From a virus, in the IMG/VR virus record IMGVR_UViG_3300020731_000094, positions 1-20,758 of that record: a DNA stretch of 20,758 nucleotides; one strand, given 5' to 3'. The notes beneath the pieces are model-generated. The model saw nothing but the letters and a program-made list of their open reading frames with translations. It was not told the origin of the DNA and ran no database searches. Shown piece after piece: positions 4,399 to 20,758 of this stretch (the first letter of the stretch is position 1; every line of letters begins with the position of its first letter). Position numbers and translations under genes: made by a program.

Positions 4399-4399
<1 letters not shown>
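3602..4399 (-). CDS. Hypothetical virion-associated protein, 265 aa
   Basis: The protein starts MELLKSKNDISVILNTEQNF and is rich in aromatic residues and short T/N/G loops, with no predicted signal peptide or transmembrane segment. No known domain is recognised. Both ends are coupled: its ATG overlaps the stop of the 599-aa gene by one base, and its stop overlaps the ATG of the PKD-motif gene by one base. This strict coupling inside the structural cluster supports co-expression with tail proteins and perhaps a fixed stoichiometry. A role in the tail or baseplate is an inference from position only. Confidence 0.65.
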
Positions 4400-6197
<1,798 letters not shown>

Positions 6198-6198
<1 letters not shown>

Positions 6199-9100
6199 TA
6201 GTTAACTGTTGTAAACGCATTAGTTGGCCCAAATCTTTCTATAAATTTATCCAAACCTGTACTTCCATGTTTTAATCCAAAATAATATTGGAATGGAGTT
6301 GATAATATTTGTTTATTACCTGAATAATAATCTTGTGTTTGTGGTATTATACAACCATCCTCAATAATCCAATCTAATACATTCCAACCAGTAACACCAT
6401 CAGTTCCAGCAGGTCCATATCTCGTATATAATGTACCTCCTGTTGCAATTACTTGTCCTTGTACCAAACCAGTTCCGGTTACATACAAATATGTAAACCC
6501 CGGAAATTCTGTATTATAATCCATATGATTATCAATAAGACCATAATCAATCGTATCAAATTCCAGTACATTACTAATGATACCATTTACATTTATTGTT
6601 AAACCTGAAAATGTATTTGTTATAGGTAATAACAAATATTTATCAATTGGATGATTTGGTGCACCTGAAAATTGGTAACCATAAGTCATTCCTTGTAATG
6701 GTTGGATTTGAACATTTCCATAATCCCAAGATTGATTTACCGAATCACCAAATCCAGTTGCTTTTTTATCCCATAAATAAAAAGGTATAGGTTGAGATGA
6801 TTCTGTTAATCTACCTGGTGAATTTAAACAACCTCTTATTTTTTCACCATTTAAATTATCTAATTTAAATGTTATTGGTGTTGGTCCCCAAGATCCATTA
6901 TTAAGTTTAAAAAATTGTGGTTCAAATCTTGGTTGGATAAATTGATAATCATAACCAACGTAATATGGATTTTGTAAATCAAAAACTTCAATACCAGCTT
7001 CAGAATTTTGTGAAATTAATTGAAGTATATCACCATTTAAAGGTTCATCTGCACCAATATTAGTAAATCCACTATTAGTGAAAAAATAATCAATATCAAA
7101 ACTAATATCACTACCTAAATCTGTTAATTTTGTTTCTAATCTATAATTTATTGTCAAACCTAAAATATCACCAATATCTTGGTAAGATGTTGCACCAATT
7201 AATCTTGAGACTGAACAATTAACATCTAAACTTGGGTCACAACAAATTTCACCCATAAAAACATCTCTAGGACCTAAATCAACCATTGTAGTTGGTTTAC
7301 CTAAAAACTCAACATTTGTACCACCCTTATTTTCATTAATACCAAAATTAGTACCATCAAAAGGTGATGAACGATAATAAAACATTTGATCATTATCAGA
7401 ATATGTCACAACATTACCACAATATTTACCATGTTTTGCTTTAAATAAAAAGAAATATAAAGACCCAGATAACCAATTATCTATAAATGAATAATTAACA
7501 ATACCACCACAAAATAATTTACCAACTCTTCTTCTAACTTTATATTCAAATAATATATCAATTAAACGACCTGTTGTTTGTGTTCCCGGTACAATATAAT
7601 ATATGCCATATGAAAATTCTGAACCACCACTTTCATGAGTAATTCTACTATAATTAGGAGGTAATAAATTACCTCCTTCATTATAAATTGTTGTTGCAAC
7701 AACATCTATAATTTCATTTGATGGAGTTCCATTTGGAACTAGAACTCTAGTAAAATTATTAGTTGTACCTGTATAATATGTATTAACAATATGTGAATTA
7801 TAAGGTATATTATATAATTGACAACCTTCTTCTAATGGTATTAATGGTACTCCAGTTTTAGAAACATTATTATCATATATTGTTACAACATATGTTTCAG
7901 GGCTATATTCAAATATATTATTATTATCTTGAAAATCAATCGTATAACCAATAATTTGTGGATTAAGTGGATCGTAATCGTGATAATATATGGGTTGTGG
8001 ATTTCTAAAATATGTGGATTCCGTAAGATTTGTTGGTATTAATAAATCAGATAAATTAATAACTGTAAAAGTATTATTTGTAACACCACTAATACCTAAA
8101 CTATAACCACTTTGAATGGCATAAAAAGTTAGATAATCGGGTTGTGGTGGTGTTGTTACTTCAACAGTATCATAAGTATTTGTAATATTGTTATAAACAT
8201 ATGTTTTATATGTGTATGTTAAATTACCAATAAAAGTAGATCCGGAACATGGTGAATTAGGAAAGTCTGATGCACCTGAAAAAGTAATTGTTAACCCGGA
8301 TGATACGAAATACGATGGAGATTCTTCCGGCATCGTATAAGATGTGGAAAAAGTAAATGAACCTATCGGACAAGAATCATTAACATTTATTTCTTTTGGT
8401 GAGTTGGTTGCAGAACTTGTTGTACACTCTACACAATCGGGATATGTGACTAAATATAATTTTTTTTGTGATCCTTCTTGTACATTTCTAGCAATTCTTA
8501 AAATTGCTCTACCCACAAACCTAATTGGTCTATGATTACATGTGTTACCTAAACTATATAATGCATTTACTAATACATTAAAAAATATTAATTTTACCGA
8601 ATTAAATAACCAATCAATAAATGCCAAAACATCCGCAATCAATAATGTGAATGTATAATTTTTAATTCCAAAATTTACTGGTGGTGTATTATGTGTAGAT
8701 GAACAATCTTCCTCTTCTGCAGGTAATAATTCTTTTAACCCTAAAAAATTATCTTTTTTAAAAGTTGACCCAGGAAAAAATGAACTTTGAAATGAAGATA
8801 CTGTATAAACCTTACCGTAAGTTATTCTATAAAAATAATCTTGTGGATAATAAAAACCATCAATATTATTTAATATTAATGATTGTGAATTAGATGGGTA
8901 ACCACTATATTCTGTTGTAAAATTATAAGATTGTTGTTTTTCATTTTCATACTCTCTTATATTAGGTACTAAATAAGACCCAATAGCTCTAACCCTTTCT
9001 AAACCACCATCTTTTAAACTAAATCTAAATCTATAACATGAAGAAGTTGGTATGCCTTTATTTGGATCATTAGTATATTCTTGTTCACCAAATTCATTTG

Positions 9101-10103
9101 TATATAAAAAATCTCTGTTCATTGGAACGGGAAATGAAAAACCACCATCATCGCTAATATCTTCATGTAAATCAAAATATTCCAAAATAGGTCTATTTGA
9201 TTCATCGTTAGCATATGAAAATCTTATTGCTTCGATTTTTCCTGCTTTAGTTGTTAAATCACATTTACGACCCATTTTTTTTCTGGGTTGACAATTTTTA
9301 TTAATTGAATTTTTTCCTGTATCTGTAAATGTACCACCAATTATATATGCCTTTGGTTGTATTTTAATACCAATAGAGGATAAATCAAAATCAGTTCTTG
9401 TTATACCAATTCGACATATATCTTGATTTCCCCAAAATGGTGAAACTTGTATTGTTTTATTATATTTAAAAATTTGAGGAAGTGAATCTAAATCTTCAGA
9501 TGATTTAAATTGATATGTGTTTTTGAATTGATCGACACCTTTACCTTGTCTTATAAAATCATCGGGTCTTAATGAAAAACAACCAATATCAGATAAATCC
9601 CCATCAAAATGTATTGTTTGTTGACCTAATGGTACTCCCCATATCATAAAATCACCAGCATCATTTGTTTTAACTGTATATTTATAATATTTTTCAAATA
9701 CTTCCAAATATTCTTCACGAGTTAAAATATCTTCTTGATCCGGAAATGTTCCTGTTGGTTCATGTCCTCCATGTTGTTTTCTTGAGGGTAATAGATTATA
9801 ACGATAATTATTATCGTCTTTATCTTCTACTGTGGTATAAGGGTATAAAACTGAAATTACGGGATCATTAACATCCACATCATCTAATGGTACAAATATT
9901 GAAACTCTTATATTTGGTACACCAAATCCATTGTTTGCAGTTACTCTACCAACAACAACACCATAATCACTACAAAATGATCTATATACGTCTGTTTGAC
10001 TAATTTTTAGGGAAAGTATTTCTAATAAGTCATAAGAATTTTCCAAATTTATAGTTAAAAACTGATCTTTACCAATATTAGTTGATATTCTATACTTATT
10101 CAT
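6198..10103 (-). CDS. Giant virion structural protein (probable baseplate/tail), 1301 aa
   Basis: This is the largest gene in the window. It starts MNKYRISTNIGKDQ. Residues about 45-175 look like a carboxypeptidase-regulatory-like or transthyretin-type beta domain: GRVTANNGFGVPNIRVSIFV, then later DAGDFMIWGVPLGQQTIHFD. A Cys- and aromatic-rich region follows, and around residues 478-515 there is an unusually hydrophobic stretch (IADVLAFIDWLFNSVKLIFF). The rest is beta-rich with many S/G/T loops. Position between gp6-like and other tail genes supports a baseplate or proximal tail role; no named family is recognised. The start codon lies inside the last codons of the upstream GIY-YIG gene (8-base overlap). 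The first 30 residues have a diverged duplicate in a 37-codon fragment at 11011-11124, which suggests that the 5' end of this gene was replaced when the nuclease gene invaded. Confidence 0.75.
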
Positions 10104-10980
10104 TAATTACATATTTTTTTATTATTCGATATACAGAGTTTGGATGTAAATTTACAATTTCACTAATTTCTTTATAAGTTAGTTTATCTTTTAGTTCTCT
10201 TATTTGTTTGTGTTTTTCTATGTCAGAATTAGGTGAAAATCCATTATTAGTAGTTTCACTAAATCTTTTTAAACAATTTTTACATTTATAATTTTGTTTT
10301 TTTATGTTTTTTAAATAAACAAAACCAGCTCGTTTTAAATTAATACTTTTACAATGGGGACATTCTAATTTAAAATTGTTATTAAATTCGTGAACCCCAT
10401 ATTTTTTTTGTTTTTCTAAATCTTTATACTCCCATATAAACCCACCAAAAGTTTTACGTTCTTTTCTACAAACCATACCTATATTTGAAGAATTTTTTAA
10501 ACCTATTGTAAGTGCAGCAATTTTCATATTTTTAAATTCATTCAATTTATTTCCATTTAAATCATATTGTACTACTGGTTCACCCAGCTCTAATGATTTT
10601 TTCATTTTAGAATACGTTAATTTTGATTCTTCAGACCATTTATTTCCTAATGTAGTTCCTGCCTTTGGTGTTAAATTAAACCCATTTTTTACAGAATTAT
10701 AAGTATCAATGTAAAATTGTTCTCTTTCTATTAAAAATTTAATATCAATATTTTCTTCAATTATATAAAATCTAAAAGACTCTTCACCATGTTTATTCCA
10801 AGATCTTTGTAATTTTATGCTAGTGTGTTTTTTATTTTTTAATAAATTAAAATGAACTATTATTCTTTTTTTTAATTTAATAGTTGATCCAATATAAACT
10901 TTGTTGTTTATAATATTTTTTATCATATAAACACAATTATAACTAATAACATTAATTCTTTCTTTAAATATATATTCCAT
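10096..10980 (-). CDS. GIY-YIG homing endonuclease with NUMOD, zinc-ribbon and HTH modules
   Basis: The protein has 294 residues from the ATG at 10980; an in-frame TTG at 11004 would add eight residues and is less likely. Residues 16-103 form the GIY-YIG nuclease: CVYMI, VYIGS, Arg39 and Glu86 within LIEREQFYID. Residues 110-130 (TLGNKWSEESKLTYSKMKKS) match NUMOD3, and 136-186 (VVQYDLNGNKLNEF then FGGFIWEY) match NUMOD1. These are DNA-binding modules of phage homing endonucleases. Next comes a four-Cys zinc ribbon (C207, C210, C233, C236) like that at the start of IS1-type transposases, then a helix-turn-helix (YKEISEIVNLHPNSVYRIIK). The enzyme would nick or cut a cognate gene lacking the insert and promote its own spread. 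The gene lies between a displaced 5' gene fragment and the intact virion gene, and its stop overlaps the latter's start. Confidence 0.88.
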   Translation of the reverse strand: MEYIFKERINVISYNCVYMIKNIINNKVYIGSTIKLKKRIIVHFNLLKNKKHTSIKLQRSWNKHGEESFRFYIIEENIDIKFLIEREQFYIDTYNSVKNGFNLTPKAGTTLGNKWSEESKLTYSKMKKSLELGEPVVQYDLNGNKLNEFKNMKIAALTIGLKNSSNIGMVCRKERKTFGGFIWEYKDLEKQKKYGVHEFNNNFKLECPHCKSINLKRAGFVYLKNIKKQNYKCKNCLKRFSETTNNGFSPNSDIEKHKQIRELKDKLTYKEISEIVNLHPNSVYRIIKKYVINE

Positions 10981-11010
10981 AATTATAAATATATAAAATT
11001 TCAAAAAAAC

Positions 11011-13522: not shown

Positions 13523-14767
13523 CTAAAAAACAATAAAATTACCAATTGAGGAATGGTTATTACAAACATTAAAGTTCATAATTACATTAGTATAATCTAA
13601 TGGCTCTGTCATAGAAGCAAGGTGATTGTCATAATATCTTTTCAAAATATTAATAGCCGAATTTAAATCTCTATCTATTTCGACTTTATCACTTAATTTA
13701 ACAATTCTATCTTTTAATTCTACCTTATTCTTAAATATTTTTCCTGTTAAAGAATTAAGTTGTGTTGTATTTCTTTCATTTATCTTAATTAAATCACATT
13801 GTTTATTTTGTAATTTATATTTAAGAAATTCTAAGAACATATTAATATTAGATTCATTAAATGATTTTCTAATACTTTTTTTATTCTTATTAATACCTTC
13901 TATTGACATTAAAGATTTAATTGTTAATTCACCTACTACAATTGTTTTGTAGTTCATATTCACTAATTGTTTACTCTGAATATGTAGAGTTTCTTTTATT
14001 TGAGTATTTTTTTTAGAATATAATTTTTTCTTAACCTTATTTAGTTTATTGTAATTTTTACTTCCTTTTTCTTTTTTACTTAATTTAGATTTAATTTCAT
14101 TAATTTGTTTACCAAAATACTGATTAATCTTTTTAGCTTTATTCTTTAAGATAAATACATTACCTTTATTATCCACACCAGTTCCTAAATTTTTTAATCC
14201 CAAATCAAACGCCAATACCTTAGTATTAATTATAACATTATCATTATATGATATTGTGTCGTTAATCACAATATCACATAACCATTTATTATTATTATTA
14301 TTAAATTTAACACAAATTTGTTTAATATTTAATTCTGATACATTAGTTAGGTTAGATTTATAGTTAAATAATATTTTATTTATTTGTATTTTATTATCTT
14401 TAAATACCCAACCTGATTGGTTAAAAACTAAGGTATGATATCTTCCTAATTCTTTTTGTTTAGGCGGTTTTGCTGTATTATCTTTTTTAATTAGGGTAAA
14501 GAATGATTGATATGATTGGGAGACTTCGGTTGCAATTGTTTGTATTGCCTTTGCGTTAAGTAATTTCCATTCTGGTTTTGTTACATTTTTTAATTTTGGA
14601 AGAAGATTAATTAATTCGAATTTTGAATATATTTTTTTATTTATTTCGTAATATTTTTGTTGAATATCAATAAGAGTATTCCATACATCCATTCTAATAT
14701 TCGACAACTGGTTAAGTTGTAATATTTGTTCTTGAGTTGGAAATAATCTAATTGAGTATGTTTTCAT
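13523..14767 (-). CDS. tnpB: TnpB/OrfB-like RuvC nuclease without zinc-ribbon cysteines
   Basis: The 414-residue protein has the OrfB layout: an N-terminal HTH-like region (MKTYSIRLFPTQEQILQLNQ), a beta domain, then a split RuvC nuclease. RuvC-I is LAFDLGLKNLGTG (Asp188), RuvC-II is IVVGEL (Glu280), and RuvC-III is EIDRDLNSAINIL (Asp365/Asp367). TnpB proteins are RNA-guided DNA endonucleases of IS200/IS605-type elements. The zinc ribbon normally placed before RuvC-III (CxxCG...CxxCG) is present by alignment (residues 333-363) but every Cys is replaced: TTQLNSLTG and IVKLSDKVE. No TnpA gene, subterminal palindromes or element ends are seen, and only about 50 bases separate the stop from gp25, leaving little room for the usual right end and guide RNA. 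It may be a stand-alone, homing-type TnpB. Catalytic acids appear intact, so activity is plausible. Confidence 0.85.
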   Translation of the reverse strand: MKTYSIRLFPTQEQILQLNQLSNIRMDVWNTLIDIQQKYYEINKKIYSKFELINLLPKLKNVTKPEWKLLNAKAIQTIATEVSQSYQSFFTLIKKDNTAKPPKQKELGRYHTLVFNQSGWVFKDNKIQINKILFNYKSNLTNVSELNIKQICVKFNNNNNKWLCDIVINDTISYNDNVIINTKVLAFDLGLKNLGTGVDNKGNVFILKNKAKKINQYFGKQINEIKSKLSKKEKGSKNYNKLNKVKKKLYSKKNTQIKETLHIQSKQLVNMNYKTIVVGELTIKSLMSIEGINKNKKSIRKSFNESNINMFLEFLKYKLQNKQCDLIKINERNTTQLNSLTGKIFKNKVELKDRIVKLSDKVEIDRDLNSAINILKRYYDNHLASMTEPLDYTNVIMNFNVCNNHSSIGNFIVF

Positions 14768-14906: not shown

Positions 14907-15614
14907 TTATGAACTACAACCTATACATTCAAATATAGAATCTGTTGGTTTTGTTGTTTCAACATAATCTACTTTAGGTTTATCGGTCTTAGTTTGTTGA
15001 ATTTTTGTTGTATCTAACGCCAAGTGTTTTGCTCCCGTTGATATCGCCTTTGTTCTAACATAATAACATAATGTTTTAAGACCCCTCTCCCATGAATAAA
15101 AATGTGAAGATGAAATTTTTGATAATGTTGGGTTTGACATATATATGTTCATTGACTGAGACTGATCAATAAATGGTCCTCTATCTGCTGACATATTAAT
15201 CAATTCTTTCTGTGAAATTTCCCAAATTGTTTTATATTTTAAAATCAAATGTTCAATTCTTTGAATTTTTTTAGTATAATTCTTTTCTTCTTTATCCAAA
15301 TAATTATTAAAATTAATATTTTGAATAGAACCATCATTCATAATAATCTCATTCTTTAATTCTTCAGACCAAATACCAAGTTTTTCAAAATCATTAATCA
15401 AATATTTGTTAACAATCAATATCTCACCACCAACTACTCTTCTGTTAAATAATGCAGAGTGTGCAGGTTCTGTCATCTCAAATGAACCTGTGATTTTAGC
15501 AGAACTATTGTGACTAACACAACCATTTTCAGTTATGTAATGGTGATCATTTTCAACTTCAATATCCCATACGGGTTCTTTTAGAATTGATTTAGTAATT
15601 TTTTTTATTTTCAT
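14907..15614 (-). CDS. nrdA: NrdA piece 3: intein C-half fused to the C-terminal part of class Ia RNR large subunit
   Basis: The protein has 235 residues. Residues 1-36 are the C-terminal half of a split intein, ending GCVSHN before Ser37. Residues 37-235 are NrdA: SSAKITGSFEMTEP, NRRVVGGEILIVN, KTIWEISQKELINMSADRGPFIDQ and SFYSWERGLKT-type sequence closely follow eukaryotic RRM1. Tyr184-Tyr185 (LCYYVRT) match the radical-transfer tyrosines Y730-Y731 of E. coli NrdA. The C-terminus FECIGCSS carries the flexible-tail Cys pair (C230, C233) that re-reduces the active site. A native start at 15614 inside the end of the upstream endonuclease gene (23-base overlap), rather than a continuous frame, shows that it is made as a separate polypeptide. 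It should be joined to piece 2 by protein trans-splicing. A terminator follows the stop. Confidence 0.93.
   Translation of the reverse strand: MKIKKITKSILKEPVWDIEVENDHHYITENGCVSHNSSAKITGSFEMTEPAHSALFNRRVVGGEILIVNKYLINDFEKLGIWSEELKNEIIMNDGSIQNINFNNYLDKEEKNYTKKIQRIEHLILKYKTIWEISQKELINMSADRGPFIDQSQSMNIYMSNPTLSKISSSHFYSWERGLKTLCYYVRTKAISTGAKHLALDTTKIQQTKTDKPKVDYVETTKPTDSIFECIGCSS
15507..15614 (-). other. Split intein 2, C-terminal half (36 aa)
   Basis: Residues 1-36 of NrdA piece 3. The start is basic (MKIKKITKSILKEP), block F reads VWDIEVENDHHYITENGCV, and block G is SHN followed by Ser as the +1 nucleophile. His-Asn at the end is the canonical cyclising pair. It pairs with the acidic N-half at 17139-17483. 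Length and position after a native ATG match natural split inteins. Confidence 0.92.
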
Positions 15615-17076
15615 AATTTATACCTTTTTTATTTAAAAAATTTTTTAATTTTTCTTCATTAAAATAAAACCCATCTTCTTCCCATAATATTAAAACTTCA
15701 AAACCATTATTTATTGCAATATTAATTTTTTCTTTATCTTTATTTATTACTTTAATTGGGTCAACAATTTTATTTTTGAATTTTTTTATTGATTCGTTAA
15801 TCTCATGTTTCTCCCAATTAGGATGCCAATAACTACCATTATATTCTATAATTATTTTTTTGTTTTTTAAGGTAAAATCATAGAAATAAATGTTTTTTTT
15901 ATCTTTAATAAAATATTCTTTATTATTTTCCACACCTAAATAAACATCGTCATAATTATTTTCAATTAAAAAATCATATAATGGTTTAAAATGTCTTAAA
16001 CTACTTTTACTTGCCTTTAAGATTTTAACAAATAATTTTTCTTTAGTCTCTTGATATTTTTTAAAACCTTTTTCGTAATCGTTTTCTTTTTTAATAAAAT
16101 AACCTAAAGATTTATTATCCGATAATTTACATTTTTCTTTATACAATAATTCACCATTTTCGTCATACTTTTTTTTAAAAAAATCCAAACTATTAGAATC
16201 TTTTTTTTGATTTTTAATTTTATACTCTTTTAAACTTTTTTCTAAATCGTCATATTTTTTTAAAAAATAATTTAAACTTGAATTGTCTTTTTTAAGATTA
16301 TTTTCGATATATTTTTCAATGTATATATTGTCACCATATTTTTTTTTGAAAAAATTTAAATTAATTGTTGTTTTTTTATTTTTTTCATCAAATATTTGTT
16401 TTGATTTTTCAACATCTCCATTTGATTTTTTCAACGCCCAAGAAAGGGATGATGAATCTTTTTTAATGTAATTTTCCCATTTTTCTAACCATTCACTTCC
16501 ATATCTTATTTTAAAATTTTCTATAGTGTTTTTACTTTTATTAACATAATCGTCATATTTCTGAATACCTTCTTTTTCGCCGTATTTTTTTATAAAATTA
16601 ATTTTAGTAGTTGATTTTTTAGTTTTATAAGAAAATATTTTTTCCAAAGCTTCTTCTTCAGTAAATCCTAGATTAATATAATAATTTTTATCATAGTATT
16701 TTGAAAATTGTTTTTGATTATTTTTAAATTTTTCATTGCCAATTTCATCTCCATACATTAAACATAAAAATGTTTTACTGTTAGAATCATTTAAATTCAT
16801 CATTTTATAATTTAAAAATTTAACCATTCTATCAATATCGATATTTGTTTTATTATTTTCAATGTATTTTATAACACTTCTAATTTGTTTTTTGTTTTTA
16901 ATAAAAATATCAATTATTTCAAATGGTTTAATTTTTTCATCGCTAATTTCTAATATTTTAAATAAAAAACTTTCATCTCCATTAATTTTTATAACGTTTT
17001 CATCTAAATTTAACATAAAAAAAATAATACTGTTTTTAGTTTTAATTTTGGTATTGTTGAAAAATAACATATTCAT
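15592..17076 (-). CDS. Vsr-like (EDxHD-type) homing endonuclease with N-terminal repeat array
   Basis: The 494-residue protein sits between the two halves of split intein 2. The C-terminal domain (about 355-480) has FYDFTLKNKKIIIEYNG followed by SYWHPN, then a helix and GFEVLILWEED. Asp400, Glu411 and His418 in this spacing resemble the Vsr-like homing endonucleases found within split-intein genes (the I-Bth0305I group). Residues 157-346 hold seven related units of about 25 residues with the core SLxxFxKKYG-x-xxEKxxxY, probably a DNA-recognition array. The protein is very Lys/Asn-rich. It presumably cuts nrdA alleles lacking the insert. The stop overlaps the start of NrdA piece 3 by 23 bases. 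The ATG at 17076 is supported by an upstream AT element; Met21 is a possible alternative. Confidence 0.8.
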   Translation of the reverse strand: MNMLFFNNTKIKTKNSIIFFMLNLDENVIKINGDESFLFKILEISDEKIKPFEIIDIFIKNKKQIRSVIKYIENNKTNIDIDRMVKFLNYKMMNLNDSNSKTFLCLMYGDEIGNEKFKNNQKQFSKYYDKNYYINLGFTEEEALEKIFSYKTKKSTTKINFIKKYGEKEGIQKYDDYVNKSKNTIENFKIRYGSEWLEKWENYIKKDSSSLSWALKKSNGDVEKSKQIFDEKNKKTTINLNFFKKKYGDNIYIEKYIENNLKKDNSSLNYFLKKYDDLEKSLKEYKIKNQKKDSNSLDFFKKKYDENGELLYKEKCKLSDNKSLGYFIKKENDYEKGFKKYQETKEKLFVKILKASKSSLRHFKPLYDFLIENNYDDVYLGVENNKEYFIKDKKNIYFYDFTLKNKKIIIEYNGSYWHPNWEKHEINESIKKFKNKIVDPIKVINKDKEKINIAINNGFEVLILWEEDGFYFNEEKLKNFLNKKGINYENKKNY

Positions 17077-17089
17077 ATTAATTGTTTTT

Positions 17090-17097
17090 TATAAATA
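17090..17097 (-). promoter_or_regulatory. AT-rich element ahead of the Vsr-like endonuclease gene
   Basis: The octamer TATTTATA on the minus strand lies 13 bases before the ATG, in the 59-base gap after NrdA piece 2. It may be a promoter or leader element giving the endonuclease, and through it piece 3, independent expression. Pure A/T composition makes the call weak. Confidence 0.25.
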
Positions 17098-17135
17098 TGT
17101 TATTTTATTTTTTTTTAACACGTAAATGACAGATA

Positions 17136-18116
17136 TTATTCGTTTATATTAATTATGTCATCATTTTCATTTAAATCTTTAACTTTAACCCATATGTTTT
17201 CATTATTTCTATTAATTAAAAATTTATGTTCCGGACTACATTTAAAAATAGTACCGTCTTCCATTTCTATATTAATAATTTCAGAGTAACCGTTGTAATA
17301 AATTTTATCCGATATTGAATATCCATTTAAGGTTTTTATTAAAATTGGAGTTTTAAAATTATACCAAACACCACCATTTTCATTTTTTTCAATGTTATCA
17401 ACATCTATATCATTTAATTCACAAATCTCTTTAAAACTTAAAACACCCTTTTCAGTTATTACCTTTGTATCAGATGTTTGACAAGCAACTGGCATTTGTG
17501 CCGTAACTAAACTATTACAAACACCATATGTTTTAACATCTTCTTTCAATGTATCCCAATCCCATAAACCTGATAGTTCAACATTATCCCACATATCAAA
17601 TTGGAATATACCTTTTGACATTGGTGAACCATCAAATCCTTCATAATTCAAATATCTACCAGTTTTACAAAGATCATTACTTTCAGTAATTGCCGCAAAA
17701 TATATTGTTTCAAATATTTGTTTATTTAATTTTTTTGCCTCCTCTGATGTGAAAATATAATCTAACAAATAAAATACATCTGCTAATCCTTGAGTACCAA
17801 TTGCAATTGCTCTTTGTTCTAATCCACCCTTTCTACCTTTTTGAGTAGAATAACTATTGATATCAATTACTTTATTAAGTGCATTAACTACTTTCCTTAC
17901 TTCTTTATACAATAGTTGGAAATCAAATTTACCATCAACAATAAAGTTCTTTAAGACAATGGAAGATAATGTACAGATTGCAGTTGTTTCAGAATCAGTA
18001 TATTGATAAATCTCACAATTATGTACCAATATATCATTACCATAAAAACATTCCGTTTCTGGTACTTGTATATCATATACGTCTTCTTTTTTAATTAATT
18101 TATTTATTTTTATCAT
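17136..18116 (-). CDS. nrdA: NrdA piece 2: intein C-half, central RNR segment, intein N-half
   Basis: The protein has 326 residues in three parts. Residues 1-33 are the C-half of split intein 1, ending LVHN before Cys34. Residues 34-211 are the central NrdA segment: CEIYQYTDSETTAICTLSS (Glu35 matches E. coli E441, and Cys48 matches C462, one of the substrate-reducing cysteines), RAIAIGTQGLADVFYLLDY, LNKQIFETIYFAA, GSPMSKGIFQFDMWD and NSLVTAQMPVA. Residues 212-326 are the N-half of split intein 2, starting with Cys (CQTSDTKVITEKG). The piece is therefore trimmed at both ends by trans-splicing. It has its own ATG, overlapping the end of the upstream GIY-YIG gene by 17 bases, and ends before a 59-base gap. 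Alone it cannot be active because the catalytic Cys and the tyrosyl relay are on the other pieces. Confidence 0.94.
   Translation of the reverse strand: MIKINKLIKKEDVYDIQVPETECFYGNDILVHNCEIYQYTDSETTAICTLSSIVLKNFIVDGKFDFQLLYKEVRKVVNALNKVIDINSYSTQKGRKGGLEQRAIAIGTQGLADVFYLLDYIFTSEEAKKLNKQIFETIYFAAITESNDLCKTGRYLNYEGFDGSPMSKGIFQFDMWDNVELSGLWDWDTLKEDVKTYGVCNSLVTAQMPVACQTSDTKVITEKGVLSFKEICELNDIDVDNIEKNENGGVWYNFKTPILIKTLNGYSISDKIYYNGYSEIINIEMEDGTIFKCSPEHKFLINRNNENIWVKVKDLNENDDIININE
17139..17483 (-). other. Split intein 2, N-terminal half (115 aa)
   Basis: This half starts at Cys1 (codon 17483-17481) directly after TAQMPVA. Block A is CQTSDTKVITEKG. Block B is EDGTIFKCSPEHKFL, with S-P-E-H in place of the usual T-x-x-H. 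The C-terminal tail is acidic (VKDLNENDDIININE), complementary to the basic start of the C-half at 15614. The stop codon ends the half, so no endonuclease domain is fused. Confidence 0.92.
18018..18116 (-). other. Split intein 1, C-terminal half (33 aa)
   Basis: Residues 1-33 of NrdA piece 2. The start is basic (MIKINKLIKKED), block F reads VYDIQVPETECFYGNDI, and block G is LVHN followed by Cys at +1. All canonical residues for cyclisation and splicing are present. It pairs with the N-half at 19318-19623. Confidence 0.93.
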
Positions 18117-19272
18117 TTTTTAAATATTCAAATTTATATTTTTTATAAGTGTTTCTTTTACCTTTACATACAGATACTATTGCTGAAATATTACCATTTT
18201 CAATGCTTTTAGATGCCTCTGTCGCGCTTTGAAATACTGTTCTGTTACCATTGGAATCTATTTTAACAACAGATTTTTTTACCCCTTTAGGTATTTCAAT
18301 TTTATATTCGCTATTTTCATATCTAAATATGTTATCATAACTAGTATTTTTTTTACATTTCCTACGAATAACCTCAACACAAAATCCATGTTCTTTGGAC
18401 GCTTCGGAGGTGTTTTTATACTCAACTTCAACAGTGTCGTTTATGTTTTTTTTAAAAAAAACTTTTTTGTTAATTTTTTCTTTTATTTTAGGTTTAATAT
18501 AGTCATTTCTAAAAGATTTTAAAATAACTAAATCTTTATTTTCAAATTTCCAATGGTAATTTTTATGTGTTCCCCCATTTTTTAAACATGAATAAAGTCT
18601 AGACGGTGTTAATTTATATTTTTCAATTGCTGAGATTGTTGTTAATCTATCTAAAATTTCTTTTGTATTAATATCTATCATTTCAACAATTGGTAATTTT
18701 TCTTTTCTAGTTTTAATTATTTTTCGTTTAGTCTCATCGCTCATTATTTTACCTTTATTCCAATGATTATTGTTTATTTTACGTAAATGGCTAAAATTTT
18801 CTTCAATTGGCCTTTTAAAATTTGGATTTTTTTCTCCTGACCAATTTTTTGACAAAATTTTATTTATTTTATCTTTCTTATCGGGAATAAATTTTAAAAT
18901 ATCACCTCCTGTTCCACCATCAGTTATATTTGTTAAAATACCTCCATCAATACTTTTACCGTAAAATTTTATTAATTCACGTTCAATATTCAAAACTAAA
19001 TTTTCATCTTCACTTTCGTAAACAATTATATAATTTGGTTCATAATTGTTTTCTTTTAATAATTTTACAGTTCTGCATTTATTGGGATTAACATCCCCAT
19101 CGCATGATATCGGATTTTTAACATAATGGAACAAATGTCTTTTTATTTTATTTTTAGTTTCATGTAATCCCTTTCCAACATAAAACGGTTTGAAAGTGAT
19201 TCCAGAATAATATGGATTATCATAATTACCTGGAAATCTATCATCCAATAAAACATACACATAATAATTCAT
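18100..19272 (-). CDS. GIY-YIG homing endonuclease inside split intein 1
   Basis: The 390-residue protein lies between the two halves of split intein 1. The nuclease domain spans residues 1-118: YVYVL, PFYVGKG (29-35), Arg45, Glu98 in IERELIKFYG, and LTNITDGG. This is the YVGKG variety of GIY-YIG. Residues 145-190 hold NUMOD3-like segments (NWSGEKNPNF, HWNKGKIMSDETKRKI). Three NUMOD1-like DNA-binding repeats follow at about 195-243, 281-318 and 335-384, each with a hydrophobic helix such as ATEASKSI and a closing aromatic strand such as KKYKFEYL. The enzyme presumably targets uninterrupted nrdA near the catalytic Cys codon. The start is 42 bases after the stop of NrdA piece 1; the stop overlaps the start of piece 2 by 17 bases, consistent with translational coupling. 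Confidence 0.9.
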   Translation of the reverse strand: MNYYVYVLLDDRFPGNYDNPYYSGITFKPFYVGKGLHETKNKIKRHLFHYVKNPISCDGDVNPNKCRTVKLLKENNYEPNYIIVYESEDENLVLNIERELIKFYGKSIDGGILTNITDGGTGGDILKFIPDKKDKINKILSKNWSGEKNPNFKRPIEENFSHLRKINNNHWNKGKIMSDETKRKIIKTRKEKLPIVEMIDINTKEILDRLTTISAIEKYKLTPSRLYSCLKNGGTHKNYHWKFENKDLVILKSFRNDYIKPKIKEKINKKVFFKKNINDTVEVEYKNTSEASKEHGFCVEVIRRKCKKNTSYDNIFRYENSEYKIEIPKGVKKSVVKIDSNGNRTVFQSATEASKSIENGNISAIVSVCKGKRNTYKKYKFEYLKNDKNK

Positions 19273-19286
19273 AAAAATTGTTCATA

Positions 19287-19294
19287 TATAAATA
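19287..19294 (-). promoter_or_regulatory. AT-rich element ahead of the GIY-YIG gene in nrdA
   Basis: TATTTATA on the minus strand, 14 bases before the ATG at 19272, within the 42-base gap after NrdA piece 1. It could provide separate expression of the endonuclease. Weak, as the sequence is A/T only. Confidence 0.25.
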
Positions 19295-19314
19295 TATCAA
19301 TAATGAGTAAACGA

Positions 19315-20758
19315 CTATTTGTACACATCTAAAACATCCGTTTCAACTAATTCATCCGCTCTAATATAACCACGATTCTTAGTGAAAATCAAATGATCTG
19401 GGGTACATTTTATACTTTTTCCAGTTTCTTCATCAATTATTTCTAAAATTTCAGAATTTTTTTTAGTTAATTTTCCGGTTAATATATCAACAAATTTACC
19501 GTTTTCACTTTTTACTTTTAATTTTTCTGAAGTTTCAATTAAATCAATTACGTTTTTAATTGTTAAATTTTCAACATCACCATTTTCTCTTTGGATGTTT
19601 AATTGGACATCTCCAGTTAAACAACAGAGATTTGATTGTTTGATAACACCATAGTTTTGATGATTTGTTTTCTTATTAGCATTATCTTTAGAACATAAAT
19701 AAGGTACACCAGTTTCAACCTGAGACTCAATTATTTTATTCCATATATCTTGTGCCTTAACTTTCCTACCAATACCTAATTCTACCGCCTTATTATAATT
19801 CTCCAAATATTCATCACCATATGAATCTTGTAATGGTTTAATACCATTTTTAATGATGTCATTTGGACAGAATAAATACCAATCAGAGTCAGATTTAACA
19901 GCCTCCATGAAGTTGTCAGGTATCCATAATGCAGTAAACAAATCCCTTGCCCTTAACTCTTCCGCACCTGTGTTCTTTTTAATCTCCAAAAGATCCATTA
20001 TATCTTTATGCCAAGGTTCAAGATATATTGCAGCACTACCAGGTCTTCTACCTTGTTGGTTAAAGAATCTTAATGATTCATTTATAATTTTAAGGTATTT
20101 TAAAAGACCACCAGCATAACCACCTGATGATGAAATTCTACTTTCTTTACTTCTGATATTTGACATACATAAACCAATACCAGCAGCATCAGATGAATAT
20201 GTTGAGATATCATTCATTGTACCCAAAAGACCTTCTCTTGAATCTGCTTCATTATATTTCAACACACAAGATGCAAGTTGAGGAACTTTAGTACCAGCAT
20301 TGATCATAATTGGTGTTGCAGGAGATATTAATTGTGTTGATAATGATTTGTAATATTCAACAGCATCTTCAAAAGATTTTGTTACCCACAAAGCCACTCT
20401 CATATACATATGTTGTGGTCTTTCAGATAATTTACCCTTTGAGTTCTTTAACAAATACATTTCAGCCAATGATCTCCATGCAAAATAATCAAAATTATAA
20501 TCATTTTCATGATTAATAATATAATCTATTTTATCCGCACCATACTTTTCAATTGTGTTTATTAACTCAATATTTATAACACCCTCATCATATAGAGTTT
20601 TCATTGTCTCAGAAAAACTTGGGTTTGTTTTTTTATGATAAGAAGATATTGCAATTATGGCAGCCAATCTCGAATAATCGTGATGGCTACCAGTGTATGA
20701 TGCTGCAATTTCATATACCAATTTATCTATTTCTCTTGTTTTTATCTGACCTTCGGTT
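19315..20758 (-). CDS. nrdA: NrdA piece 1: N-terminal part of class Ia RNR large subunit fused to intein N-half, 5' end outside window
   Basis: The frame is open to the right edge (TEGQIKTREIDKL precedes LVYEIAA), so the true start, and any ATP-cone, lie outside. A TTG at 20721 is not a credible start. NrdA reduces ribonucleotides to deoxyribonucleotides for phage DNA synthesis. Strong matches to eukaryotic RRM1 include SERPQHMYMRVA, NAGTKVPQLASCVLK (its Cys equals E. coli C225), RRPGSAAIYLEPWHKDI, ARDLFTALWIPD and VIKQSNLC, where the last Cys (codon 19626-19624) equals the thiyl-radical Cys439 and the Asn equals N437. The next residue is Cys1 of an intein N-half of 102 residues that ends at a stop codon. 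The protein must be trans-spliced to piece 2 to rebuild the active site. Confidence 0.95.
   Translation of the reverse strand, partial: TEGQIKTREIDKLVYEIAASYTGSHHDYSRLAAIIAISSYHKKTNPSFSETMKTLYDEGVINIELINTIEKYGADKIDYIINHENDYNFDYFAWRSLAEMYLLKNSKGKLSERPQHMYMRVALWVTKSFEDAVEYYKSLSTQLISPATPIMINAGTKVPQLASCVLKYNEADSREGLLGTMNDISTYSSDAAGIGLCMSNIRSKESRISSSGGYAGGLLKYLKIINESLRFFNQQGRRPGSAAIYLEPWHKDIMDLLEIKKNTGAEELRARDLFTALWIPDNFMEAVKSDSDWYLFCPNDIIKNGIKPLQDSYGDEYLENYNKAVELGIGRKVKAQDIWNKIIESQVETGVPYLCSKDNANKKTNHQNYGVIKQSNLCCLTGDVQLNIQRENGDVENLTIKNVIDLIETSEKLKVKSENGKFVDILTGKLTKKNSEILEIIDEETGKSIKCTPDHLIFTKNRGYIRADELVETDVLDVYK
19318..19623 (-). other. Split intein 1, N-terminal half (102 aa)
   Basis: This half starts at Cys1 (codon 19623-19621) immediately after SNLC of NrdA. 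Block A is CLTGDVQLNI and block B is GKSIKCTPDHLIFTKN with the canonical T-x-x-H. The tail is acidic (RADELVETDVLDVYK), complementary to the basic N-terminus of the C-half at 18116. The frame then stops; the endonuclease is a separate downstream gene. Confidence 0.93.

What the first reader, a model, noticed from the sequence alone, without database searches (positions are those of the whole stretch)
14907..20758. A ribonucleotide reductase gene fractured into three polypeptides by two split inteins
Piece 1 ends in an intein N-half, piece 2 has an intein C-half at its start and another N-half at its end, and piece 3 begins with the second C-half. Canonical splice residues (Cys1, TxxH or SPEH, His-Asn, +1 Cys or Ser) are readable at all four junctions. 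Removing the inteins leaves a continuous NrdA (366 visible + 178 + 199 residues) colinear with RRM1. 'Fractured genes' with split inteins and a free-standing endonuclease gene between the halves are known from phage and environmental data (Dassa and colleagues, 2009, including NrdA). Two in series in one gene, needing an ordered three-part protein ligation for an essential enzyme, is the striking point.
Basis: partly seen in the sequence, partly recalled or inferred. Interest (0 to 1): 0.85.

Follow-up and report, generated by a model that had tools for sequence, protein, structure and literature searches.

The report
Phage reductase gene split into three
In this uncultured phage the gene for the large subunit of ribonucleotide reductase, which makes DNA building blocks, is broken into three genes whose protein products most likely rejoin themselves through two different self-splicing split inteins, and the same arrangement turns up in several unrelated phages, one of them already grown in the laboratory.

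Summary
On the minus strand, three ORFs carry one class Ia ribonucleotide reductase large subunit (NrdA). Piece 1 ends in an intein N-half, piece 2 starts with its C-half and ends in a second N-half, and piece 3 starts with the second C-half. Each break holds a free-standing endonuclease gene: GIY-YIG type at break 1, Vsr/EDxHD type at break 2. The exteins join without a missing residue, at the radical cysteine (RRM1 C429/T430) and the phosphate loop (RRM1 605/606).

It is not an assembly error: a 162 kb contig repeats it, and 80 of 80 close relatives inspected are uninterrupted at both sites. About eight NrdA lineages (this one included) and two NrdJ loci have two split inteins in series, among them cultured Klebsiella phage KP13-7, whose sister phiKp_21 is empty at site 1. 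Splice residues are intact, all parts show dN/dS below 1, and carriers have Cys at +1 where empty sites have Asn.

Best explanation: two independent Dassa-type split-intein cassettes in one gene, removed by two orthogonal trans-splicing reactions in any order. Single fractured nrdA genes are known; I found no report of the serial form, but could not read Dassa 2009. Splicing itself is inferred.

The parts
19315..20757 (-). NrdA piece 1: extein 1 (378 visible aa; 5' end outside the window) followed by intein 1 N-half; stop at 19315-19317
   Evidence: ORF list; PF02867 profile 1-213 and PF00317; full-length 527 aa version in L086
19318..19623 (-). Intein 1 N-half, 102 aa, Cys1, block B CTPDH
   Evidence: NrdJ-1 intein PDB 8ubs E = 1.9e-20
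18100..19272 (-). Free-standing endonuclease e1, 390 aa, GIY-YIG type (YVY...YVG, RxxxH, E of IERELI), C-terminal I-HmuI/NUMOD-like DNA-binding motif; its stop overlaps the start of piece 2
   Evidence: PF22945 weak in the window copy, above cut-off in homologue L092; PF22083 above cut-off in homologues L089, L092, L103; motifs
17136..18116 (-). NrdA piece 2: intein 1 C-half, extein 2 (178 aa), intein 2 N-half
   Evidence: PF02867 profile 213-390 and PF14890
18018..18116 (-). Intein 1 C-half, 33 aa, ending VHN before +1 Cys
17139..17483 (-). Intein 2 N-half, 115 aa, Cys1, block B CSPEH
   Evidence: PF14890; alignment of relatives
15592..17076 (-). Free-standing endonuclease e2, 494 aa: helical, repeat-rich N-terminal part and a C-terminal Vsr/EDxHD nuclease domain; its end overlaps the start of piece 3
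   Evidence: no Pfam match; model residues 356-486 match I-Bth0305I catalytic domain 3r3p Z 9.5, rmsd 2.7, 95 aligned, and Vsr 1cw0 Z 8.8; invariant D, E, H and D in relatives
14907..15614 (-). NrdA piece 3: intein 2 C-half, extein 3 (199 aa) to the NrdA C-terminus
   Evidence: PF02867 profile 391-523
15507..15614 (-). Intein 2 C-half, 36 aa, ending SHN before +1 Ser
19276..19295 (-). Promoter-like element ATATTTATA..AACAATT just upstream of e1
   Evidence: 2 matches in the window against 0.02 expected (pattern chosen after seeing both sites); TATATTTATA kept in front of e1 homologues
17080..17098 (-). The same element just upstream of e2

Best explanation
Two separate mobile split-intein cassettes (N-half, own endonuclease gene, C-half) have inserted at two conserved active-site positions of one phage nrdA gene. 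Each cassette ends translation of the upstream piece and starts a new gene downstream, so three polypeptides are made. Intein 1 joins extein 1 to extein 2 and intein 2 joins extein 2 to extein 3 by protein trans-splicing, giving an 802 aa NrdA. The two reactions can run in either order and rely on the inteins not cross-pairing. The endonucleases are not needed for splicing; each most likely cuts nrdA genes that lack its cassette so that repair copies the cassette in. Shown by sequence: anatomy, splice residues, purifying selection, empty sites, recurrence. Inferred: that splicing and homing actually happen.
For: Contiguous NrdA profile across the pieces and E = 3e-186 to human RRM1, with site 1 between C429 and residue 430 and site 2 between residues 605 and 606. 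The catalytic residues are therefore divided among the pieces, and no piece can be active alone. Complete splice residues at both inteins. Same arrangement, 99.8% identical over 9.4 kb but with scattered substitutions, in a 162 kb contig from another assembly, and break 1 also in a third contig. 80 of 80 close relatives are uninterrupted at both points. At site 1, empty relatives have Asn (79) or Ala (1) at +1 while all 73 carrier contigs have Cys; at site 2 carriers have Ser or Thr. dN/dS is 0.06-0.42 for every part, endonucleases included, where it could be estimated. Between the two strains the intein halves carry no amino-acid change. Klebsiella phage KP13-7 has the same five-gene order, and its sister phiKp_21 is empty at site 1 with Gln (CAG) where KP13-7 has Cys (TGT). 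Site-1 and site-2 inteins form two separate clades. N1 and N2 are 29.6% identical.
Against: No splicing, protein or homing experiment exists for these sequences. Orthogonality of the two inteins is inferred from divergence only, and C1 and C2 are still 50% identical. Block B of intein 2 has Ser in place of the usual Thr. The cut sites of e1 and e2 are unknown. dS is near saturation in several comparisons.
Confidence: 0.88

Rival explanations
1. The three pieces assemble without splicing, like NrdA-a/NrdA-b of Aeromonas phage Aeh1, and the intein halves are dead appendages.
For: A gene-in-pieces NrdA without an intein is reported to work in Aeh1 (PMC3653736).
Against: All splice residues are intact and conserved; halves show dN/dS below 1 and no amino-acid change between strains; carriers hold Cys at +1 against Asn in empty genes. 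The breaks lie directly beside the radical cysteine and in the phosphate loop.
Confidence: 0.06
2. Assembly error or chimeric contig.
For: The window is a metagenomic virus fragment.
Against: Same order in a 162 kb contig with scattered differences, and break 1 in a third contig; relatives with the same cassettes at 60-85% identity; the same layout in a deposited complete genome of a cultured phage.
Confidence: 0.01
3. nrdA is a degenerating pseudogene accumulating parasites, and the phage depends on the host enzyme.
For: Such decay has been suggested for Campylobacter phage nrdA (PMC3653736). The phage carries many other inteins.
Against: Extein dN/dS is 0.08-0.23 in all three pieces, including those behind the breaks; between strains piece 3 has one synonymous and one conservative change; nrdB is intact next door.
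Confidence: 0.04
4. The breaks are removed at the RNA level by group I introns.
For: Group I introns do interrupt nrdA in relatives, e.g. KP13-7.
Against: No Rfam match in the window. The flanks are intein halves whose homologues have solved HINT structures, not intron ends.
Confidence: 0.01

Closest known systems
Fractured genes of Dassa et al. 2009 (split intein plus free-standing endonuclease gene; 7 nrdA and 2 nrdJ loci in GOS data according to PMC3653736)
   Same: Enzyme gene split inside a conserved motif, N-half and C-half on separate genes, endonuclease gene between them, phage origin, Vsr-like endonuclease at site 2.
   Different: Two complete cassettes in series in one gene, with endonucleases of two unrelated families. 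Whether Dassa et al. saw a serial case I could not check, as the paper is not held.
NrdJ-1 split intein (PDB 8ubs)
   Same: Intein 1 is a clear homologue (E = 1.9e-20), with the same TKNRGYVRADEL block and the same split position.
   Different: Sits in class Ia NrdA rather than class II NrdJ; about a third shorter loop before block B.
Klebsiella phage KP13-7 nrdA (OP617745; annotated as nrdA fragments and hypothetical proteins)
   Same: Same five-gene order: N1, GIY-YIG gene, C1-extein-N2, endonuclease gene, C2-extein.
   Different: Remote NrdA; a different, HNH-like endonuclease at site 2; an extra group I intron upstream. Sister phiKp_21 lacks the intron and the site-1 cassette.
Engineered three-segment (tandem) protein trans-splicing (PMC12707363, PMC7090010)
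   Same: Two orthogonal split inteins build one protein from three segments.
   Different: Man-made; here it is natural, in an enzyme of nucleotide metabolism.
Aeromonas phage Aeh1 NrdA-a/NrdA-b (mobE insertion; described in PMC3653736)
   Same: Phage nrdA broken by an endonuclease gene.
   Different: No intein; the parts work without being joined.

Membership tests
Fractured gene (Dassa type) | Conserved enzyme gene split into separate ORFs with intein N-half ending one and C-half starting the next | tested here: met
   Both breaks
Fractured gene (Dassa type) | Free-standing endonuclease gene between the halves | tested here: met
   e1 and e2
Fractured gene (Dassa type) | Uninterrupted homologues with a precise empty site | tested here: met
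   80 of 80 relatives for both sites; phiKp_21 for site 1
Fractured gene (Dassa type) | Protein trans-splicing demonstrated | not testable with these tools
   Needs protein expression
Class 1 intein | Cys/Ser at position 1, block B TxxH, terminal His-Asn, Cys/Ser/Thr at +1 | tested here: met
   Intein 2 of the window has SPEH for TxxH; the His is invariant in the family
HINT fold | Horseshoe beta fold of inteins | tested here: met
   Intein 1 by sequence to 8ubs. Intein-2 family: model of the contiguous homologue in L091 (pLDDT 87.5) matches GyrA, Npu DnaE and gp41-1 inteins, E about 1e-9 to 1e-7; the window's own split halves were not folded together
EDxHD/Vsr homing endonuclease (I-Bth0305I family) | Vsr-like nuclease fold with conserved acidic and His residues | tested here: met
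   3r3p Z 9.5, 1cw0 Z 8.8 over model residues 354-486; D400, E411, H418, D447 invariant in five homologues
GIY-YIG homing endonuclease | GIY-YIG domain with catalytic Tyr, Arg and Glu | tested here: met
   PF22945 below cut-off in the window copy but above it in L092; motifs readable; nuclease activity untested
Class Ia NrdA | Barrel domain with radical Cys and redox Cys pair | tested here: met
   RRM1 alignment, C429 and C444 aligned, first redox Cys in extein 1

The most novel reading that the evidence does not exclude
Serial fracturing of one enzyme gene by two site-specific, mutually orthogonal split inteins is a recurrent and stable gene architecture in large phages. Loss of the endonuclease gene leaves an obligate split intein behind, so breaks accumulate like a ratchet; this phage's genome then needs at least five split inteins, plus several contiguous ones, working side by side without cross-pairing.
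Probability: 0.6. Interest if true: 0.75.

Novelty: new variant of a known kind. Interest (0 to 1): 0.62.

Why it matters
It is a natural counterpart of engineered three-segment trans-splicing, in a central enzyme of DNA synthesis. It shows that phages can tolerate, and keep, an enzyme that exists only after two protein ligations. The layout of the middle piece makes orthogonality between natural split inteins a testable selective constraint, and cultured KP13-7 and phiKp_21 give a ready pair (with and without the site-1 cassette) to test trans-splicing and homing directly. The set of empty, split with endonuclease, split with remnant, split without endonuclease and contiguous alleles at the same two sites lets the life cycle of split inteins be followed in one gene. 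The sequences also offer new orthogonal split inteins for protein engineering.

Tried and rejected
Assembly error: rejected. RNA introns in the window: no Rfam match. Non-spliced assembly and pseudogene: disfavoured. 'Ordered ligation': no feature imposes an order. Duplication of one intein into the second site: rejected, as site-1 and site-2 inteins each form their own clade; the labels came from profile matches, but position in the extein agreed wherever it could be checked, except three cases with a shifted profile start. Bacterial origin: the genome scan found only four distant matches. Sequence search of e2 against solved structures found nothing; the fold search did. The seven-row site-2 alignment was too diverse for a scan; a five-row one worked. 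Literature: Dassa 2009 and Carvajal-Vallejos 2012 are not held, and searches found no report of two split inteins in series in nrdA. L208 and L209 were not compared with each other and may be one phage, so the lineage count is approximate.
Full report
OBSERVATION. The minus strand of 14907-20757 holds, in order of transcription, piece 1 (extein 1 + intein 1 N-half), endonuclease gene e1, piece 2 (intein 1 C-half + extein 2 + intein 2 N-half), endonuclease gene e2, and piece 3 (intein 2 C-half + extein 3). PF02867 matches the three pieces at profile positions 1-213, 213-390 and 391-523. Joined, the 755 visible extein residues match human RRM1 over 735 residues at E = 3e-186. The window cuts off the start of piece 1; in a 162 kb contig of the same phage, piece 1 is complete at 527 aa, so the spliced NrdA would be 802 aa, with an intact nrdB just upstream.

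ASSEMBLY. The window is a 20.8 kb IMG/VR record. The 162 kb contig IMGVR_UViG_3300000439_000004 matches it at 99.8% over 9.4 kb with scattered substitutions, and a third contig repeats break 1. So the breaks are real.

EMPTY SITES. At site 1, empty genes have Asn at +1 in 79 cases and Ala in one. All 73 carrier contigs with a readable junction have Cys there, and site-2 carriers have Ser or Thr. In one sub-group (for example TG1, L113, L124) the insertion lies one codon earlier, so the +1 residue is the native radical cysteine itself; in the window's sub-group, +1 is an added Cys in place of Asn. The clearest pair is Klebsiella KP13-7 and phiKp_21: 97-99% identical flanks, the site-1 cassette present only in KP13-7, and TGT (Cys) against CAG (Gln) at +1.

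WHERE THE BREAKS FALL. Site 1 lies between RRM1 C429 and residue 430, and site 2 between residues 605 and 606 (numbering from the alignment). From established knowledge of this enzyme, C429 carries the thiyl radical, C444 is one of the redox pair, and the 603-607 loop binds the substrate phosphates. Catalytic residues are thus spread over the three pieces.

INTEINS. Both have Cys1, a block B His, terminal His-Asn and a usable +1 residue. Intein 1 is a homologue of the NrdJ-1 split intein (E = 1.9e-20). Intein 2 is closer to Npu DnaE and gp41-1. A contiguous relative of intein 2 (L091) was modelled at pLDDT 87.5 and matches solved inteins. In a tree of 90 inteins, site-1 and site-2 alleles form separate clades, each including copies from class II NrdJ genes. 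In this phage N1 and N2 share 29.6% identity and C1 and C2 50%.

SELECTION. dN/dS against six relatives is below 0.43 for all nine parts where it could be estimated; several dS values are close to saturation. Between the two strains, e2, C1, N2 and C2 are unchanged, N1 has one synonymous change, and e1 four synonymous and one amino-acid change.

ENDONUCLEASES. e1 has GIY-YIG motifs; homologues pass the Pfam cut-offs. e2 has no Pfam match, but its C-terminal domain matches the I-Bth0305I catalytic domain (Z 9.5) and Vsr (Z 8.8). From my own knowledge this is the EDxHD family that was linked to fractured genes. Both genes end inside the first codons of the next NrdA piece, which suggests translational coupling (inference). 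Both are preceded by an ATATTTATA...AACAATT element, and TATATTTATA is kept in front of e1 in relatives; a promoter role is inference.

RECURRENCE. Among the NrdA contigs that carry these inteins, site 1 is split with an endonuclease gene in 47, split with a remnant in 8, split without one in 13 and contiguous in 5; site 2 is split with one in 19, split without in 5 and contiguous in 5. Two split inteins in series occur in nine NrdA contigs (the window's phage as L086, L088, L124, KP13-7, L138, L144, L185, and L208/L209, which may be one phage) and in two NrdJ contigs (L170, L183) (NrdJ identified and by position). The sample was collected by intein queries, so these are not population frequencies.

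MECHANISM. Most likely each piece is translated separately, intein halves find their partners, and two independent trans-splicing reactions give full NrdA. Because piece 2 has the layout C-half, extein, N-half, cross-pairing of C1 with N2 would cyclise extein 2, and N1 with C2 would skip it. The separate ancestry of the two inteins is what makes the double arrangement workable. HEG-less split alleles suggest that once the endonuclease is lost the split can remain; L091 site 2, with a Met at the old start of its C-half, looks like a split intein fused back into one chain, though the direction of that change is not shown.

KNOWN AND NEW. The kind is known: Dassa et al. 2009 described fractured genes, including nrdA (as cited in PMC3653736). 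Phage nrdA with two inteins is on record for Campylobacter phage IBB_35 (PMC3322345). Three-segment trans-splicing has been engineered (PMC12707363). What I did not find reported is two split inteins with two endonuclease genes in series in one natural gene, and its repeated occurrence. As the founding paper could not be read, I rate it a new variant of a known kind.

Noticed in passing
162 kb contig IMGVR_UViG_3300000439_000004 (same phage): L193, L195, L194, L197: At least three more split inteins: a Clp-type ATPase and a dUTPase, each with a Vsr-like endonuclease gene between the halves, and an unusually split large terminase (about 31 aa N-half). Contiguous inteins also sit in terminase, portal (two), prohead protease and PhoH: about ten inteins in one phage.
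   Followed up: partly
L129 (Klebsiella phage KP13-7), 3753-4417: A group I intron (RF00028, E = 1.2e-9, just below the curated score) with an HNH gene, absent from phiKp_21. This nrdA would need RNA splicing and two protein trans-splicings.
   Followed up: partly
L185, 2694-5216: A third split intein in an nrdA that already has two, followed by a probable group I intron. Its C-half ends in His-Asn but +1 is Gly, so it may not splice.
   Followed up: partly
L119, 2154-5520: A different double fracture: an unusually split intein (42 aa N-half) with an HNH gene at an upstream site, plus the site-1 split intein.
   Followed up: no
L170, L183: NrdJ (class II reductase) genes with the same two intein sites both split, each with an endonuclease gene.
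   Followed up: partly
L091 site 2 (8981-9436): Contiguous mini-intein with a Met exactly where the C-half start codon lies in split relatives, perhaps a split intein fused back after endonuclease loss.
   Followed up: no
window 13523-14767: Lone TnpB-like (OrfB_IS605) gene right after nrdA, before baseplate genes.
   Followed up: no
window 10096-11004: Another GIY-YIG endonuclease gene between structural genes, overlapping the next gene start.
   Followed up: no
window 4399-6198: Structural-region gene ending in a run of about a dozen Asn codons (AAT repeat), a candidate length-variable tract.
   Followed up: no
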